Below, one piece after another: positions 5,059 to 25,508 of a stretch of 64,000 bases of DNA. Made by a program: the position numbers and the translations under genes. The notes under the pieces are model-generated. The model did not search any database, was not told the origin of the DNA, and saw only the letters and a list, made by a program, of their open reading frames with translations. The DNA comes from Allosphingosinicella indica (GTDB lineage Bacteria; Pseudomonadota; Alphaproteobacteria; Sphingomonadales; Sphingomonadaceae): the NCBI RefSeq assembly GCF_900177405.1, contig NZ_LT840185.1:2533501-2597500 (forward strand), given 5' to 3'. How positions within the stretch are numbered: position 1 is the stretch's first letter; each line of letters begins with the position of its first letter.

Positions 5059-6318
5059 ATGCGGTGGATAGCTCTGGGATGTGCGGTGCTTGCGGCCTGT
5101 CCCGCGCTCGCGGCCGATCAATGGGTGGTGCGCACCGATCGGTGGGGCAACACCTTCAGCCAGTCGCTGCTGATCGAGCCCGGCGCATCCGAAGGCACGC
5201 TGGACGGTGCGCCCGCGCGCGTGACGCGCAACGGGAAGTCGATCCTGATCGAGACCGGCGATGCCCGCTTCGAAGGGCGCGTCGATGGCGCAACAATAAA
5301 TGGCACCGCAACCCTTCCCGACACGCAGGACCGAACCAAGCGCGTCCGCCATGCCTTTACCGCCCGCCGCATCGCCTCCGCCGATGGCCCGCCCCGCACG
5401 CACCGCTACACGCCCGCGGATTTCTCCAACCTCTTCTCCGCCGATCGCGCGCCCGTGCTCGTCATCCGCTCGGGCGACACGGTGCAGACCGAGACGATCG
5501 ATTCCGGCGGCGTCGACAGCGCCGGCAAGACGCGCGCGCTCTACGGCAATCCGCAGACTGGCCCCTTCTTCGTCGCCGGCGCCGAAGCCGGCGACACGCT
5601 CGCCATCCGTATCGATGCGCTGACGCCCAATCGCGACTGGGCCGACAGCCTCGACATGCTCGTCGGCCGTGCCCAGACCCGCGCCACCGCGGCCCGGGCC
5701 GGCGATCTCGGCAAGCCTGTCCGCTGGACGGTCGATCGCGCGCGCGGCGTCGCGCGGCCGGAGGGGCGGCTCGCGGGCTATGAGATCCCGCTGAAGCCCA
5801 TGCTCGGCGGCATCGCGCTCGCCCCGCCGTTCGGCTTCGCGCCGCCCTCGACCGGCGACACGGGCCGCTTCGGCGGCAACATGGATTTCAACGAGATCGG
5901 CGCCGGCGCGACCGTCGATCTCCCCGTCGAGCAGCCCGGCGGCCTGCTCTACATCGGCGACGCCCATGCCGCGCAGGGCGACGGCGAGACCAGCCAGTTC
6001 GCGCTCGAAACCTCGATGGACGTCACCTTCACCGCGACACTCGTCAAGAAAAGCCGCATCGCGACACCGCGCGTCGAGACGGCGACGCACCTCTGGGCGA
6101 TCGGCCAGTCGGGAACCACCGAAGATGCGATCAAGCTTGCGACCGCCGGCCTCACCCAATGGCTGGAGCAGACCTACGGCCTCACGCTCTCCGACGCCGC
6201 GGTCATCCTCGGCAGCGCCGCCGAATATCGCGTCGCCACCCTCGCCGGCCAGAATGTCGGCATGGCCGCCGGCATCGCCAAGGCGCGGCTGGCGGGACTT
6301 GCGGCAGCCGCGCCTTGA
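5059..6318 (+). CDS. acetamidase/formamidase family protein, exported
   Basis: This 419-residue protein has a signal peptide from the ATG at 5059 (MRWIALGCAVLAACPALA), so the upstream in-frame ATG at 5032 is less likely. A roughly 100-residue beta-rich N-terminal extension is followed by the FmdA_AmdA-type fold. Signatures include the NPQTGPFFVAGAEAGDTL segment, the AIRIDALTPNRDW strand, the GGNMDFNEI motif and GLLYIGDAHAAQGDGE. Cytoplasmic relatives hydrolyse formamide or acetamide; this exported version probably acts on another amide in the periplasm. It converges on the serine hydrolase gene. Substrate unknown. Confidence 0.82.
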   Translation: MRWIALGCAVLAACPALAADQWVVRTDRWGNTFSQSLLIEPGASEGTLDGAPARVTRNGKSILIETGDARFEGRVDGATINGTATLPDTQDRTKRVRHAFTARRIASADGPPRTHRYTPADFSNLFSADRAPVLVIRSGDTVQTETIDSGGVDSAGKTRALYGNPQTGPFFVAGAEAGDTLAIRIDALTPNRDWADSLDMLVGRAQTRATAARAGDLGKPVRWTVDRARGVARPEGRLAGYEIPLKPMLGGIALAPPFGFAPPSTGDTGRFGGNMDFNEIGAGATVDLPVEQPGGLLYIGDAHAAQGDGETSQFALETSMDVTFTATLVKKSRIATPRVETATHLWAIGQSGTTEDAIKLATAGLTQWLEQTYGLTLSDAAVILGSAAEYRVATLAGQNVGMAAGIAKARLAGLAAAAP

Positions 6319-19340: not shown

Positions 19341-20936
19341 ATGGGACCAGCGTTTCAGCGATATTGGTGGCGCGACGGCGATAGCCTGCTGCGCGTCTAC
19401 GCATGGGCGGCGATGCTGCTCGCGTCGCTGCTCAACTTCCTCAACCACAATCAATATCCCGCGTGGCGCGCCGAAGTGACGCTCGCCGCGCTGGCGATGG
19501 TCGCGCTCGGCCTGGCGCTCGGCGTCGTCCACAGGCTGGCGATGCCGCGCCTATCCTTCCTTTTTACCGCGTTGCTCGCCGCGCTGGCCGTCGATCTCAA
19601 TGGCGATCGGCTCTGGCTAGTCCCGGCGGCTTTCGGCGCGACGCTGGTGGTCGCCTTCTTCGCCGATCGCGCCGCGGTCAAACTCATCGCTGCGGCCTTC
19701 ACGGGCGTCCTCGTCTTCCAGCTTGCCGGCCTGCATGGCGACCGGCCCGATCGTCCCGCCTTCGCGCGCAAGGCCGCGCCCGATCCGGCGGCAGGACCGC
19801 CCATCGTCCACCTCATTCTCGATGGCTATATGGGGCTCGGCGGCATGGCCGCCGATCCAGCGGCGTTCGGCGCCTTGCGCGATGCCAACACCGCTTTCTT
19901 CCGCCGCCACGGCTTCCGCCTCTACGGCAACGCTTATAGCGAGCATCGCAACACCACCAACAGCCTGCCGCACATCCTGTCTTTCGGTCAGGCGGCCCCA
20001 GCGACGACGCCGCAGCGGCTCCAGCACAGCGTCCCCGGCCCGCTCGCCTATTTCGGGCTGCTCCGCCGCGCCAGCTACAAGACCTATGTCCTTCAGACCG
20101 ACTATATCGATCTGTGCGCAAGGCAGGGCGTCGCGGGCTGTTCGACCTACCCCCGCTCCGATCTCGCGACGATGGATGCGGTCGCGATGCCGACTTCGGC
20201 CAAGGCGGAAACGATCCTGAGCTCGCTGGCCTCTCTTGCCGTCCTTCCCACCCTCCTCGATTCCGCGACGCTCGACGTTCGCAGCAGTCTGGCGGGCGAA
20301 GCGGTGCCACCGCTCGAACAGCGCGCCAAGCTATTCCCCATCGCATCGATGGCCGCGATGGACCGGCTCACCGCATCGCTCGCCGGCGCGCGGCGTGGCG
20401 AAGCCTATGTCGCGCACCTCCTGCTCCCCCACGACCCCTACCTCTACGACGCCGCCTGCAAGGTGAAGCCGCGCAGTGCGTGGACCTTCGAGGAGGCGGA
20501 GGGCGATCGCGTCCGGCGCGATGCGGATTATGCCGCGCAATCGCGCTGCCTCCTGACCCGGCTCGACGCGATGCTCGCCGTGCTCGCCAAGTCGCCTGAC
20601 GGCCGCGACGCCATCGTCATCCTTCATGGCGATCACGGCTCGCGCATCGTCGATATTGTGCCGGAGCTGGGCCAGCCTGGCGAGCCGTCGCCGCGCGATT
20701 ATGCGATGACCTATTCCACCCTCTTTGCAGTCCGCGGACCCGGCGTCGCGCCCGGAGAAGACGGCAGTGCCGCGCCGGTCGCATCGCTGCTCGGCGCCTT
20801 CGCAGCATTCGGCTTCGCCGCCACGCCCGACCCCGCCGGGGCCGCCGACGCCGAGCGTCACGTCCTGCTGACCGACGATCGCTGGACCCCGCGCCGCAAG
20901 GTGCCCCTCCCCGCCTTCGAACGCCCCGCGCTTTAA
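19341..20936 (+). CDS. membrane-bound sulfatase/phosphatase-superfamily protein
   Basis: This 531-residue protein has about four to five N-terminal membrane helices (residues 14-130) and a large periplasmic domain of the alkaline phosphatase/sulfatase superfamily. Metal-site motifs are visible: the first aspartate in LILDGYMG, a Thr/Ser-containing NTTNSLPHILSF segment at the nucleophile position, and HGDHG at 429-433. Architecture recalls lipoteichoic acid synthase-like phosphoglycerol transferases. It is followed 63 nt later by a tiny membrane protein and a methyltransferase on the same strand. Likely modifies a surface glycan or lipid; substrate unknown. Confidence 0.8.
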   Translation: MGPAFQRYWWRDGDSLLRVYAWAAMLLASLLNFLNHNQYPAWRAEVTLAALAMVALGLALGVVHRLAMPRLSFLFTALLAALAVDLNGDRLWLVPAAFGATLVVAFFADRAAVKLIAAAFTGVLVFQLAGLHGDRPDRPAFARKAAPDPAAGPPIVHLILDGYMGLGGMAADPAAFGALRDANTAFFRRHGFRLYGNAYSEHRNTTNSLPHILSFGQAAPATTPQRLQHSVPGPLAYFGLLRRASYKTYVLQTDYIDLCARQGVAGCSTYPRSDLATMDAVAMPTSAKAETILSSLASLAVLPTLLDSATLDVRSSLAGEAVPPLEQRAKLFPIASMAAMDRLTASLAGARRGEAYVAHLLLPHDPYLYDAACKVKPRSAWTFEEAEGDRVRRDADYAAQSRCLLTRLDAMLAVLAKSPDGRDAIVILHGDHGSRIVDIVPELGQPGEPSPRDYAMTYSTLFAVRGPGVAPGEDGSAAPVASLLGAFAAFGFAATPDPAGAADAERHVLLTDDRWTPRRKVPLPAFERPAL

Positions 20937-20999
20937 CGATTAATTATACATGATCCGCCTAGCTCCTGCGCCAAGAGACATGGGGTTCAGGAGGGTAGG

Positions 21000-21221
21000 A
21001 TGGGCATTTCCAAGGCAGCGATCTCCGCGGTCGGTTTCACCGCAATGCTGGGGCTCGCCGCGCCCGCACATGCCTATCTCGATCCCGCCACCGGCAGCAT
21101 CATCCTCCAGGCGCTGTTCGGCGCGATCGCGGGCGCGACCCTGTTCTTCCGCACCTCGCTCTACCGGCTGAAGGCGATCTTCCAGCCACGCCGCAAGGCG
21201 GACACCGAGCAGGACGTCTGA
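21000..21221 (+). CDS. small membrane protein with YLDPATGS motif
   Basis: A 73-residue protein with a signal peptide-like start (about 1-23, ends AHA). The motif YLDPATGSIILQ follows, then a membrane helix (about 34-50) and a basic cytoplasmic tail. A GGAGGGTAGG ribosome site precedes the ATG. Small proteins of this YLDPxTGS type accompany sulfatase-like and methyltransferase genes in other polysaccharide loci, as far as I recall. Its stop shares one base with the methyltransferase ATG, so the pair is translationally coupled. Function unknown. Confidence 0.8.
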   Translation: MGISKAAISAVGFTAMLGLAAPAHAYLDPATGSIILQALFGAIAGATLFFRTSLYRLKAIFQPRRKADTEQDV

Positions 21222-22618
21222 TGACGGCGATGATCGTCGAGCCGGGGTCGTTCCGCGATCCTGGCGGGCGCGTGTTCGACACGCCGGGCGCGATCCTCCG
21301 TTCGATCATGCCGTCCGCCGCGGACGGTTTCCGGCAGACGCGCGACAGCGGCTTTCTGGACCGCCTGGTCGGCGAGGGCCGCCTCGTTCCCTATCAGGAC
21401 GTCAGCGCCGCCGACCGGCCTGACGGCCTCGACGGCGCCGCGCATGTGCTCGAACATCCGCGCCTGCCGTTCATCAGCTATCCCTATGAATGGAGCTTCT
21501 CGCTCCACCGCGCGGCCGCGCTCTTCCATCTCGATCTGCATCTCGATGCGCTGGAGCGCGGCTTCACGCTCGCCGATGCCACCGCCTACAATGTGCAGTT
21601 CGACGGCGTCCGCCCGATCTTCATCGATCACCTCTCGCTCCGCCCCTATGTCGAGGGCGAGATCTGGGCCGGCCACCGCCAGTTCTGCATGCAGTTCCTC
21701 AACCCGCTGCTGCTCTGGTCGGCGCTCGAAGTGCAGCCCAACCACTGGTTCCGCGGCAATCTGGAGGGCATCTCGCCCGAGGACACCGCCAAGCTCCTCC
21801 CCTTCCGCAAGAAGCTGTCGTGGACGGTGGCGGTGCATGTCGCCGCGCAGGCCGCGATGCAGCGCCGCTCGGTGCGCACCAGCACCGGATCGGCAAGCTA
21901 CCGCCAGACCAAATTTCCGCTGGAGGGCGCCAAAGCGATGCTGCGCGGCCTGCGCCGCAAGATCGCCGGCCTCAAGCCGCCGTCGCACGCCACCGTCTGG
22001 GGCGATTATGCCGGCCGCAACAGCTATCAGACGCCGGACGCCGCCGCCAAGGCTGCCTTCGTCGCGGAGATGACCGCCGCGGTGCAGCCGCGCCTGCTCT
22101 ACGATCTCGGCTGCAACAGCGGCGACTATTCGGTGGTCGCGCTCGAATCCGGCGCCGGGAAGGTCGTCGGCTTCGATTTCGATCATGGCGCGCTGGAGCT
22201 CGCTTATTCGCGCGCGGCGCAGCAAAAGCTCGATTTCCTGCCGCTCTGGCTCGACGCCGCCAACCCGAGCCCGTCGCAGGGCTGGGGCCAGGCCGAGCGC
22301 AAGGGTCTCGCCGGCCGCGCCGCGCCCGACGCCGTCGTCGCGCTCGCCTTCATCCACCACATCACCATCGGCAGGAACGTGCCGCTCGACATGGCGGTGC
22401 GCTGGATCGTCGACATGGCGCCCGCCGGCATCATCGAATTCCCCGACAAGGCGGACCCAATGGTGCAGAGCCTGCTCGCGCAGCGCCCCGACATCTTCCC
22501 CGATTACAGCGACGCCAACTTCGCCAAGCTGCTCGGCGATCAGGCTCGGATCGTGAAGACCGCCCAGGTCAACGACGGCACCCGCACGCTCTACTGGTTC
22601 GATCGCTCGGGCGGCTGA
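21221..22618 (+). CDS. two-domain class I SAM-dependent methyltransferase (NoeA-like)
   Basis: This 465-residue cytoplasmic protein has an N-terminal region of about 250 residues with conserved LADATAYNVQFDG and FIDHLSLRPY segments, recalling a degenerate kinase-like fold. A Rossmann methyltransferase domain follows, with motif I DLGCNSGDY at about 295-303 and the acidic strand VVGFDFDHGALE. This arrangement resembles nodulation protein NoeA-like methyltransferases. It overlaps the upstream small membrane protein stop by one base. The 3' end overlaps the convergent DMT transporter gene by 28 bases. It probably methylates a glycan precursor; this is inferred. Confidence 0.82.
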   Translation: MTAMIVEPGSFRDPGGRVFDTPGAILRSIMPSAADGFRQTRDSGFLDRLVGEGRLVPYQDVSAADRPDGLDGAAHVLEHPRLPFISYPYEWSFSLHRAAALFHLDLHLDALERGFTLADATAYNVQFDGVRPIFIDHLSLRPYVEGEIWAGHRQFCMQFLNPLLLWSALEVQPNHWFRGNLEGISPEDTAKLLPFRKKLSWTVAVHVAAQAAMQRRSVRTSTGSASYRQTKFPLEGAKAMLRGLRRKIAGLKPPSHATVWGDYAGRNSYQTPDAAAKAAFVAEMTAAVQPRLLYDLGCNSGDYSVVALESGAGKVVGFDFDHGALELAYSRAAQQKLDFLPLWLDAANPSPSQGWGQAERKGLAGRAAPDAVVALAFIHHITIGRNVPLDMAVRWIVDMAPAGIIEFPDKADPMVQSLLAQRPDIFPDYSDANFAKLLGDQARIVKTAQVNDGTRTLYWFDRSGG

Positions 22619-23598: not shown

Positions 23599-25119
23599 AT
23601 GAGCGCATTCGGACGGCGCAGCGGCGCAGGCATGGCCGGGCAGCGGCCGTCGTTCGGCGTCGCACGGCCGATGAAGGGCGGCGGCACCACCCCGCCGGGC
23701 CCGATGCCGGTCGAGGGCGGCGAGCAATTCCCGCCGCTCGAAGCGCTGCCGATGGACGAGGAGATGAGCTTCGAGCCGGCCGCCGGCGACGCGATGTCGC
23801 GGCTGCACGAGCGGATGAGCTCGGCGACCGAGAATGCCTCCTCGCGCAACGAAGGTTTCGAAGCCTCGATCCACCGCATCAAGGAGCAGGTGCTGCCGCG
23901 CCTCCTCGAGCGCGTCGATCCCGAGGCCGCCGCGACGCTCAGCAAGGACGAGCTCGCCGAGGAGTTCCGCCCGATCATCGGCGAGGTGCTCGCTGAGCTC
24001 AAGATCAACCTCAACCGCCGCGAGCAGTTCGCGCTGGAGAAGGTGCTGGTCGACGAGCTGCTCGGCCTCGGGCCGTTGGAAGAATTGCTCAACGACGCGC
24101 TCGTCACCGACATCATGGTCAACGGGCCGGATCAGACCTTCATCGAAAAGAAGGGCAAGCTCCAGCTCGCGCAGATCCAGTTCCGCGACGAGGAGCATCT
24201 GTTCCAGATCGCCCAGCGCATCGTCAACAAGGTCGGCCGCCGCATCGACCAGACGACCCCGCTCGCCGACGCCCGCCTCTCGGACGGCAGCCGCGTCAAC
24301 GTCATCATCCCGCCCTTGAGCCTCAAGGGCACCGCCATCTCGATCCGTAAGTTCTCGGAAAAGCCGATCACGCTCGACATGATGAAGAACTTCGGTTCGA
24401 TGTCGGACAAGATGGCGACCGTGCTCAAGATCGCCGGCGCCAGCCGCATGAACATCGTCGTTTCGGGCGGCACCGGCTCGGGCAAGACGACGATGCTCAA
24501 CGCCATGTCGAAGCTGATCGATCCGGGCGAGCGCGTCATCACCATCGAGGACGCGGCCGAGCTCCGGCTCCAGCAGCCGCACTGGCTGCCGCTCGAAACC
24601 CGCCCGCCGAACCTCGAGGGTCAGGGCGCGATCACGATCCGCGATCTCGTCATCAACGCGCTGCGTATGCGGCCCGATCGCATCATCCTGGGCGAGATCC
24701 GCGGCGCGGAATGTTTCGATCTCCTCGCCGCGATGAACACCGGCCACGACGGCTCGATGGCGACGCTCCACTCCAACTCCCCGCGCGAATGCCTCGCGCG
24801 TATGGAGAATATGGTGATGATGAGCGACATCAAGGTGCCGAAGGAGGCGATCAGCCGCCAGATCGCGGACTCGGTCGATCTCATCGTCCAGGTCAAACGC
24901 CTCCGCGACGGCTCGCGCCGCACCACCAACATCACCGAAGTGATCGGCATGGAAGGCGACGTCATCGTCACCCAGGAGCTGTTCAAGTTCGAATATCTCG
25001 ACGAAACCGCCGACGGAAAGATCATCGGCGAATATCGCTGCATGGGGCTCCGGCCGTACACGCTGGAAAAGGCCAAGCAGTTCGGGTTCGATAAGCCCTA
25101 CCTCGAAGCCTGCCTCTAA
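23599..25119 (+). CDS. cpaF: CpaF-type secretion ATPase
   Basis: CpaF (TadA) powers Flp/Tad pilus assembly. The 506-residue protein has a Gly/Pro-rich N-terminal tail (about 1-75), a helical linker, then the type II/IV secretion ATPase domain. Walker A GGTGSGKT is at 290-297; ITIEDAAELRL is the Asp box, ILGEIRGAE the Walker B region, and GHDGSMATLHSNSPRECL the His box. The rest of the tad locus (cpaA-E, flp, tadB/C) is not in the window, so this gene appears isolated. A palindrome-rich gap follows. Confidence 0.92.
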   Translation: MSAFGRRSGAGMAGQRPSFGVARPMKGGGTTPPGPMPVEGGEQFPPLEALPMDEEMSFEPAAGDAMSRLHERMSSATENASSRNEGFEASIHRIKEQVLPRLLERVDPEAAATLSKDELAEEFRPIIGEVLAELKINLNRREQFALEKVLVDELLGLGPLEELLNDALVTDIMVNGPDQTFIEKKGKLQLAQIQFRDEEHLFQIAQRIVNKVGRRIDQTTPLADARLSDGSRVNVIIPPLSLKGTAISIRKFSEKPITLDMMKNFGSMSDKMATVLKIAGASRMNIVVSGGTGSGKTTMLNAMSKLIDPGERVITIEDAAELRLQQPHWLPLETRPPNLEGQGAITIRDLVINALRMRPDRIILGEIRGAECFDLLAAMNTGHDGSMATLHSNSPRECLARMENMVMMSDIKVPKEAISRQIADSVDLIVQVKRLRDGSRRTTNITEVIGMEGDVIVTQELFKFEYLDETADGKIIGEYRCMGLRPYTLEKAKQFGFDKPYLEACL

Positions 25120-25195: not shown

Positions 25196-25285
25196 GTCGA
25201 GAGAGCGCGAATGCCGGACGGCCTGCGCCGCAGGCGACAGGACCGACGTCACGGGATTAACTCCCGTGACGGCCCACCCCCATCA

Positions 25286-25371
25286 CCGTCACCCTGAACT
25301 CGTTTCAGGGTCCATCGCGGAGACCCCCGCAACCGTCCCCACCCTGGATGCTGAAACAAGTTCAGCATGAC
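25286..25371. repeat. composite palindromic repeat, copy 1
   Basis: An 86-base unit containing two stem-loops: ACCCTGAA/TTCAGGGT at the left and CTGAA/TTCAG extended by ATG/CAT at the right. The near-identical second copy lies 41 bases downstream in the same orientation. A unit of the same architecture but different stem sequence lies at 54301-54391. It resembles dispersed intergenic palindromes of sphingomonads. Confidence 0.8.
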
Positions 25372-25412
25372 AGCGTAGTAGCGCGCCATACCAAGCGCCC
25401 CCACCCCCCAAA

Positions 25413-25497
25413 CCGTCACCCTGAACTCGTTTCAGGGTCCATCTGCGAGACCCCGCAACCGTCCCCACCCTGGATGCTGAACCAAGTTCAGCATGAC
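25413..25497. repeat. composite palindromic repeat, copy 2
   Basis: This is the second copy of the unit at 25286-25371. The few differences are a missing base in the middle spacer and a C for A in the right-hand loop. The tandem arrangement suggests local duplication. Confidence 0.8.
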
Positions 25498-25508
25498 GAC
25501 GTCCGCCC

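What the first reader, a model, noticed from the sequence alone, without database searches (positions are those of the whole stretch)
19341..22618. Sulfatase-like/small YLDP protein/NoeA-like methyltransferase trio
Three coupled genes combine a membrane sulfatase-phosphatase superfamily enzyme, a 73-residue membrane protein with a YLDPATGS motif, and a two-domain methyltransferase. I recall similar combinations in surface-polysaccharide regions, but no described pathway. The small protein may be a scaffold or membrane adaptor.
Basis: partly seen in the sequence, partly recalled or inferred. Interest (0 to 1): 0.75.

Follow-up and report, generated by a model that had tools for sequence, protein, structure and literature searches.

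The report
Membrane-docked kinase-methyltransferase gene trio
Three neighbouring bacterial genes form a widely conserved set, related to the nodulation genes noeA and noeB, that may add methylated phosphate groups to a cell-surface molecule, and its tiny third protein looks like an overlooked membrane dock that also sits, unnamed, beside noeA in the alfalfa symbiont.

Summary
The trio is real, exactly placed and conserved. The "methyltransferase" is a NoeA homologue (48% to S. meliloti NoeA) whose N-terminal domain is kinase-like according to a published survey of the family. The "sulfatase" is a NoeB homologue: an alkaline-phosphatase-superfamily membrane protein with a Thr/Ser nucleophile. 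The 73-residue YLDPATGS protein is the near-constant partner: beside NoeA in 77 of 80 related loci by profile; in 367 alphaproteobacterial genomes NoeA-like and YLDP co-occur in 21 of 23 (Fisher p 1e-24), within 500 bp in 19 of 21. It is also an unnamed ORF between nodL and noeA on S. meliloti pSymA. In three genomes the YLDP segment is the N-terminus of a protein with a PF04464 (glycerophosphotransferase) domain; in two more a PF04464-like gene lies beside it (one just under cut-off). This supports a membrane-dock role. A weak alignment places an invariant NoeA His-His pair on the pair WbdD needs to methylate a sugar phosphate. Best reading: YLDP tethers NoeA, which phosphorylates a glycan or glycolipid and methylates that phosphate; NoeB acts on the phosphodiester outside. 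Substrate, order and NoeB reaction are inferred. New variant of a known kind.

The parts
19341..20936 (+). NoeB-like membrane protein: N-terminal hydrophobic helices, then an alkaline-phosphatase-superfamily domain; D161, T205 (nucleophile by homology), H359, H364, D431, H432.
   Evidence: 28% identity to S. meliloti NoeB over 486 positions; Pfam Sulfatase 15.4 bits, below the cut-off of 25; AF2 pLDDT 91.8; Foldseek to choline sulfatase, EptA, PbgA, LtaS; residues counted over 39 rows.
21000..21221 (+). YLDP small membrane protein, 73 aa: signal-peptide-like N-terminus ending AHA, then YLDPATGS, one hydrophobic helix, basic C-terminal tail.
   Evidence: No Pfam or NCBIfam family above cut-off; 72-row alignment, residue counts; beside NoeA in 77 of 80 loci by profile.
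21075..21098 (+). The YLDPATGS motif, directly after the AHA that would be a signal-peptidase site.
   Evidence: In 72 rows: Ala at -1 in 65, Ala at -3 in 61, Tyr in 71, Asp in 72. Coordinates are residues 26-33 of P0002.
21221..22618 (+). NoeA-like protein: kinase-like domain (about residues 1-220) and class I SAM methyltransferase domain (about 250-465).
   Evidence: 48% identity to NoeA; R27, D119, N124, D136, D295, G297, N299, G301, H379, H380, R455 invariant in 76 rows; AF2 pLDDT 94.1; profile matches to methyltransferases, WbdD among them.

Best explanation
The trio is a noeB-like / YLDP / noeA-like module that decorates a cell-envelope glycan or glycolipid with a methylated phosphate. 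SHOWN by sequence: the three families are genetically linked across phyla; NoeA-like proteins keep D, N and D in a kinase-type spacing and a SAM site; NoeB-like proteins have a Thr/Ser-nucleophile alkaline-phosphatase-type active site behind membrane helices; YLDP has a signal-peptide-like N-terminus, one hydrophobic helix and a basic tail, and occurs as the N-terminus of proteins with a PF04464 transferase domain. INFERRED: after signal cleavage the YLDPxTGS tail sits at the outer face and the basic tail at the cytosolic face, docking NoeA at the membrane. There NoeA phosphorylates a sugar of a lipid-linked or nascent glycan and then methylates that phosphate, as WbdD does. NoeB, facing the periplasm, moves or trims the phosphodiester after the product has crossed the membrane.
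For: YLDP beside NoeA in 77 of 80 NoeA-centred loci, same strand in all 77. Draw of 367 alphaproteobacterial genomes: NoeA-like in 23, YLDP in 31, NoeB-like in 27; NoeA+YLDP 21 of 23 (p 1.3e-24), within 500 bp in 19 of 21; NoeA+NoeB 15 of 23; of 10 genomes with YLDP but no NoeA, 5 hold NoeB-like (p 4.7e-6), adjacent in 3. Draw of 299 Pseudomonadota: full-length NoeA in 5, each with YLDP and a NoeB-like gene in the same cluster. S. meliloti pSymA: nodL - 71-aa YLDPGTGS ORF - noeA - noeB. YLDP fused to PF04464 in 3 genomes, a PF04464-like gene beside it in 2 more. The profile alignment to WbdD puts H379/H380 on H132/H133, which WbdD needs for methylation but not for phosphorylation (PMC3482155 section 6). 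Thr/Ser nucleophile in 39 of 39 NoeB-like rows.
Against: The stretch of the WbdD alignment that holds His-His scores only 5.3-5.7 bits and is not significant alone (independent E above 100); METTL5 outranks WbdD in both searches; NodS and RebM, similar folds, have two His or two Tyr there. WbdD R203 and Y16 equivalents were not aligned. The kinase fold was not confirmed here: no PDB kinase by profile apart from a single-sequence hit to uridylate kinase at E 0.54, one of 76 members at E 0.069 to RIO1, 3.4% and 1.5% probability against two kinase families that match each other at 86.6%; the 50 Foldseek rows shown are methyltransferase-fold entries, WbdD at rank 25. WbdD works without a periplasmic partner. 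17 of 80 loci show no NoeB-like gene in the stretch held, 11 of them acidobacterial. Two of 23 NoeA genomes lack a detected YLDP. No substrate is known.
Confidence: 0.45

Rival explanations
1. The kinase-like domain is a binding or pseudo-enzymatic domain; NoeA is a plain O-methyltransferase of a glycan hydroxyl, and NoeB is a phosphatase or phosphodiesterase of the same pathway.
For: The position of the usual kinase Lys is Arg (stated for the family; R27 invariant); no firm kinase match by sequence here; a His-His pair is not exclusive to phosphate methyltransferases.
Against: D119, N124 and D136 are invariant in 76 of 76 rows, more than mere binding would need; the published analysis calls the active site conserved; NoeB residues and the PF04464 partners of YLDP point to phosphodiesters.
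Confidence: 0.25
2. The YLDP protein is not a dock but the substrate or carrier: its conserved tail is phosphorylated or methylated in the cytosol by NoeA before export and then processed by NoeB.
For: The motif Asp is invariant in 72 of 72 rows, Tyr and Gln in 71, Ser in 66; in the window the gene overlaps noeA by one base.
Against: YLDP also occurs with NoeB-like and PF04464 proteins without NoeA, and as part of PF04464 proteins, which fits an anchor better than a NoeA substrate.
Confidence: 0.1
3. The module modifies a secreted signal molecule, as proposed for noeA/noeB and Nod factors, rather than an envelope polymer.
For: [quoted passage not shown] the 1995 source paper is not held).
Against: The module occurs in many phyla, in some loci beside glycosyltransferases, Wzt_C and Wzy_C genes. 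I did not search those genomes for nodulation genes.
Confidence: 0.12
4. The genes are neighbours without shared function.
For: The window copy starts 42 bp after an ORF that I take for an ATP synthase gene, with no recognised pathway genes directly around it.
Against: Association and adjacency far above chance in drawn genomes and across phyla with changed gene order.
Confidence: 0.02

Closest known systems
NoeA / Lani_1194 kinase-methyltransferase family (pan-kinome of Legionella, PMC9758233)
   Same: Same two domains in the same order; 48% identity to NoeA over 457 positions.
   Different: That paper names the neighbours Lani_1193 (65% of 816 neighbourhoods) and Lani_1195 (38%, alkaline-phosphatase fold, NoeB homologue). 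The section I read describes no YLDP motif, topology or fusion.
nodL-noeA-noeB operon of Sinorhizobium meliloti
   Same: NoeA-like and NoeB-like genes with a YLDPGTGS ORF before noeA.
   Different: No nodL-like gene was seen beside the window trio; the papers seen name three genes only.
WbdD (E. coli O9a chain terminator)
   Same: Kinase-type and class I methyltransferase domains in one protein; SAM motif aligned, His-His pair in a weak second stretch.
   Different: Opposite domain order, no coiled-coil tail; the kinase-like part does not match it by profile.
Membrane alkaline-phosphatase-superfamily proteins EptA, LtaS, PbgA
   Same: Membrane helices, then a Thr-nucleophile domain.
   Different: 10-14% identity in Foldseek; choline sulfatases rank higher there; donor and acceptor unknown.
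PF04464 CDP-glycerol:poly(glycerophosphate) glycerophosphotransferases
   Same: Fused to, or beside, the YLDP segment in genomes without NoeA.
   Different: Not in the window; an alternative partner of the same small protein.

Membership tests
NoeA / Lani_1194 family | Full-length homology over both domains | tested here: met
   48% identity over 457 positions, E 1e-142
NoeA / Lani_1194 family | Conserved D, N, D of the kinase-type active site | tested here: met
   D119, N124, D136 invariant in 76 of 76 rows
NoeA / Lani_1194 family | Protein-kinase-like fold of the N-terminal domain | tested here: inconclusive
   AF2 model confident, but no kinase among the 50 Foldseek rows shown except WbdD; sequence and profile tests weak
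WbdD chain terminators | Order methyltransferase - kinase - coiled coil | tested here: not met
   Methyltransferase domain is C-terminal here and ends the protein; WbdD order from the abstract
WbdD chain terminators | His-His pair needed for phosphate methylation | tested here: inconclusive
   H379/H380 invariant in 76 rows and aligned with H132/H133, but in a stretch of 5.3-5.7 bits, not significant alone (residues named)
WbdD chain terminators | Phosphorylation then methylation of a terminal sugar | not testable with these tools
   Needs an enzyme assay
Formylglycine sulfatases | Cys nucleophile in CxPxR | tested here: not met
   Thr in 36 and Ser in 3 of 39 rows at the nucleophile; no CxPxR in any of the 39
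NoeB | Homology over most of the length, and position beside noeA | tested here: met
   28% over 486 positions, E 2e-38; S. meliloti order nodL-YLDP-noeA-noeB
EptA/LtaS-type membrane transferases | Thr nucleophile and metal ligands | tested here: met
   D161 39/39, T or S at 205 39/39, D431 39/39, H432 32/39; which residues bind metal is recalled from the superfamily
EptA/LtaS-type membrane transferases | Catalytic domain outside the membrane | tested here: inconclusive
   Four long N-terminal helices in the AF2 model, 3-36, 44-66, 69-87, 93-130; five hydrophobic segments by my own reading, which would put the domain outside
EptA/LtaS-type membrane transferases | Transfer of a phospho group from a lipid donor | not testable with these tools
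   Needs an enzyme assay

The most novel reading that the evidence does not exclude
YLDPxTGS proteins are a so far undescribed class of membrane docks for cytosolic enzymes that build phosphate or phosphonate diesters on envelope glycans. One kind of client is the NoeA kinase-methyltransferase (methyl phosphate), another the PF04464 transferases (glycerol phosphate or a phosphonate), and each is paired with an extracytoplasmic NoeB-like enzyme. The noe operon of rhizobia then holds an overlooked fourth gene that its host-range function needs.
Probability: 0.38. Interest if true: 0.78.

Novelty: new variant of a known kind. Interest (0 to 1): 0.6.

Why it matters
The papers seen treat noeA and noeB as host-range genes whose chemistry is only hypothesised; WbdD-like kinase-then-methylase chemistry is a testable prediction, and an unnamed 71-residue ORF inside the operon should be included in any test. 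A small-protein family found from Alphaproteobacteria to Bacteroidetes and Firmicutes, for whose window member no Pfam or NCBIfam model reaches its cut-off, would be a general part of how bacteria put phosphate groups on their surface.

Tried and rejected
Sulfatase activity: rejected on the nucleophile. Anti-phage defence: only one match, 21 bits over residues 259-342 to a MADS model, taken as generic methyltransferase likeness; no NoeA relative at E 1e-5 in 50,697 phage records. Promoter and terminator patterns: one of each in the region, against shuffle means of 0.4 and 1.5; no use made of them. Kinase test against Kdo (PF06293) and fructosamine (PF03881) kinases: weak, 3.4% and 1.5%, controls 0.1-0.6%; the D..N..D stretch fell in register with the fructosamine kinases. 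One search picked wrong strands and is discarded; I used 9 of 10 chosen Kdo loci and 22 of 23 chosen fructosamine-kinase loci, one of each dropped by length, and not the weaker hits. Six weak YLDP hits: with the pattern only G197 shows the motif; the other five I take for chance. G197 has a NoeB-like gene beside it. Of the ten YLDP-only genomes in the class draw, G564 and G589 carry YLGP/YIGP instead and may be another family; they are kept in the counts. Shared neighbours in the 80 loci (BLAST clusters): reading-frame shadows of noeA aside, the largest was a further sulfatase-like group in 11 loci; no other exceeded 8. Literature searches; the search for YLDPGTGS, YIDPGTGS or DPGTGS found one unrelated paper. 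Papers: PMC9758233 (section 8 whole, other passages), PMC3482155 (abstract, sections 6 and 7), PMC10945364 and PMC9048898 (passages); the rest were seen as listings only. On re-checking I lowered the best explanation from 0.5 to 0.45 and the novel case from 0.4 to 0.38, because the His-His stretch of the WbdD alignment is not significant alone, and raised the first rival from 0.22 to 0.25.
Full report
WHAT IS THERE. The three ORFs are at the stated coordinates with coding-type base composition. Genes two and three overlap by one base. The first gene starts 42 bp after an ORF that I recognise, without a tool test, as the ATP synthase epsilon subunit. Downstream lie an EamA transporter on the other strand and a T2SSE (CpaF-like) gene. 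The genome is one contig of 2.8 Mb; the named relatives closest to the query are mostly Sphingomonadales. None of the three proteins reaches a Pfam or NCBIfam cut-off.

FAMILY OF THE THIRD GENE. It is 48% identical to NoeA of S. meliloti over 457 positions. Of 99 genomes of its order, three gave a full-length match (the window's included), a fourth a match in two pieces, and two only weak methyltransferase hits, so the gene is patchy. These 80 are the closest to the query and not a random sample. In 76 aligned rows, the window's included, R27, SYPYEW (86-91), D119, N124, D136, D295, G297, N299, G301, H379, H380 and R455 are invariant. The kinase reading of the first domain comes from the published analysis of Lani_1194 (PMC9758233 section 8), which reports the D, N, D residues and an Arg in place of the usual Lys. 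My own tests of the fold were weak.

METHYLTRANSFERASE CHEMISTRY. A profile of the family finds WbdD among its matches (E 0.002-0.003; 1.3e-4 to 1.7e-4 with the methyltransferase domain alone) and the 7SK methylphosphate capping enzyme (E 0.01 and 0.004-0.005). METTL5 and others rank near or above them, so this is not specific. The alignment to WbdD has two stretches; the first (17 bits) covers the SAM motif, the second (5.3-5.7 bits, not significant alone) puts H379/H380 on H132/H133 in the numbering of chain 4uw0. In WbdD these, with R203 and Y16, are needed to methylate a sugar phosphate but not to make it (PMC3482155 section 6). The same section says that NodS and RebM have two His or two Tyr there. 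R455 is invariant here and lies between two C-terminal strands, as I infer for R203; they were not aligned.

THE FIRST GENE. It is 28% identical to NoeB over 486 positions. AF2 gives a confident model (pLDDT 91.8) that matches choline sulfatase best, then EptA, PbgA and LtaS among others. Over 39 rows the nucleophile position is Thr in 36 and Ser in 3, D161, H359, H364 and D431 are invariant, and none holds CxPxR. That fits phosphate chemistry, not formylglycine sulfatase action.

THE SMALL PROTEIN. By profile it lies beside noeA in 77 of 80 loci, and by motif in a 78th, L040; it was not found in L064 and L090. It is on the same strand in all 77. One search lists 67 upstream and 10 downstream; for seven of the ten the start of the noeA ORF was drawn too long (profile starts), so I count 74 upstream and 3 downstream (L070, L076, L085). 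In 72 aligned rows: Ala at -1 in 65 and at -3 in 61, Tyr 71, Asp 72, Ser 66, Gln 71; the most hydrophobic 18 residues begin 6-9 residues after the Tyr in all 72; a 20-residue stretch behind them has net positive charge in 69. Five rows lack a clear N-terminal hydrophobic part (L065, L066, L069, L074, L085), three of them starting 5-10 residues before the motif. This fits a cleaved signal peptide and a single helix with the motif outside; no signal-peptide program was on hand.

CO-OCCURRENCE WITHOUT CENTRING ON NOEA. In 299 Pseudomonadota genomes full-length NoeA-like proteins occur in 5; the same 5 hold YLDP at E of 2e-18 or less, and all five clusters hold a NoeB-like gene, in two of them between YLDP and noeA (E 2e-15 and 5e-15 in those two). 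In 367 Alphaproteobacteria: NoeA-like 23 (E 1e-30), YLDP 31 (E 1e-6), NoeB-like 27 (E 1e-20); pairs NoeA-YLDP 21, NoeA-NoeB 15, YLDP-NoeB 20; Fisher p 1.3e-24, 3.9e-14 and 1.3e-19; NoeA and YLDP within 500 bp in 19 of 21, NoeA and NoeB in 11 of 15. NoeA without YLDP: G494 and G506. In G671 the two are 7.7 kb apart. In G687 YLDP is 216 bp from a NoeB-like gene but 120 kb from NoeA. Seven genomes have NoeB-like proteins alone. Genomes were counted as independent, which related ones are not, and some probably contributed to the alignments (G242 has the contig length of L054).

OTHER PARTNERS. Of the ten YLDP-only genomes, three (G474, G547, G558) have the YLDP segment as the N-terminus of a 421-452 residue protein with a PF04464 domain (38-49 bits, cut-off 22.1), and two have a PF04464-like gene beside it (G545 39.4 bits; G553 20.8 bits, below the cut-off). 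G672 has PEP mutase-cytidylyltransferase, TPP enzyme and Fe-alcohol dehydrogenase genes just before YLDP, a set that I recall from phosphonate synthesis. G394 and G400 stay unexplained, G564 and G589 are doubtful members. The fusions place the enzyme domain on the side of the basic tail, hence my dock reading.

SYMBIOSIS LINK. Of 72,556 plasmid records 65 hold a NoeA-like gene: Sinorhizobium 57, Rhizobium 3, Ensifer 1 and four others. The small ORF was found in 61 records, Sinorhizobium 57, Rhizobium 3, Ensifer 1; the two lists were compared by these numbers, not record by record. In strain R14 it is annotated as a hypothetical protein between nodL and noeA. The papers seen call the operon nodL, noeA, noeB.

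NOEB-LIKE GENES IN THE 80 LOCI. 50 of 80 by a profile iterated five times, which by then also takes in broader sulfatase-like proteins. Ten more by sequence cluster (two of these, in L026 and L049, had no Pfam match) and L077 by Pfam give 61. L014 and L062 have partial BLAST matches at contig ends. The other 17 show none in the stretch held; 11 of them are acidobacterial.

CONTEXT. Of 118 neighbour genes scanned (of 135 listed) up to 7 match one glycosyltransferase family; no pathway dominates. Glycosyltransferases, an ABC ATPase with Wzt_C, and Wzy_C occur beside some copies.

VERDICT. A genuine module, partly in print. New here, as far as the searches in an open-access library show: the YLDP family as the constant partner (the 2022 paper may hold it under the name Lani_1193), its place in the noe operon, its fusions, and the possible WbdD-like phosphate site. 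The mechanism is a proposal.

Noticed in passing
L176:1086-4094 (-) and L180:2719-5457 (+): NoeB-like proteins of 1003 and 913 aa carry an N-terminal 60KD_IMP (YidC-like) domain before the sulfatase-like domain, beside the YLDP-PF04464 fusions.
   Followed up: partly
L183:1831-5579: PEP mutase-cytidylyltransferase, TPP enzyme and Fe-alcohol dehydrogenase genes run straight into a YLDP gene, which suggests phosphonate decoration.
   Followed up: partly
L029:4258-4473 and 5774-6001: Two YLDP ORFs in one locus, only the second directly before noeA.
   Followed up: no
L185 (G671): YLDP gene followed by two NoeB-like genes, with the NoeA-like gene 7.7 kb away on the other strand.
   Followed up: no
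window 23599-25119 and L011:7535-9058: A T2SSE (CpaF-like) gene lies downstream of the module both in the window and in a sphingomonad relative, so the insertion place may be shared.
   Followed up: no
L106 (G197): A YLDP gene without NoeA between a sulfatase-superfamily gene and a sulfotransferase-family gene.
   Followed up: partly
window about 25250-25500: Overlapping ORFs share repeated peptides such as HAELVSAS and WTLKRVQGD, which looks like short interspersed repeats between genes.
   Followed up: no
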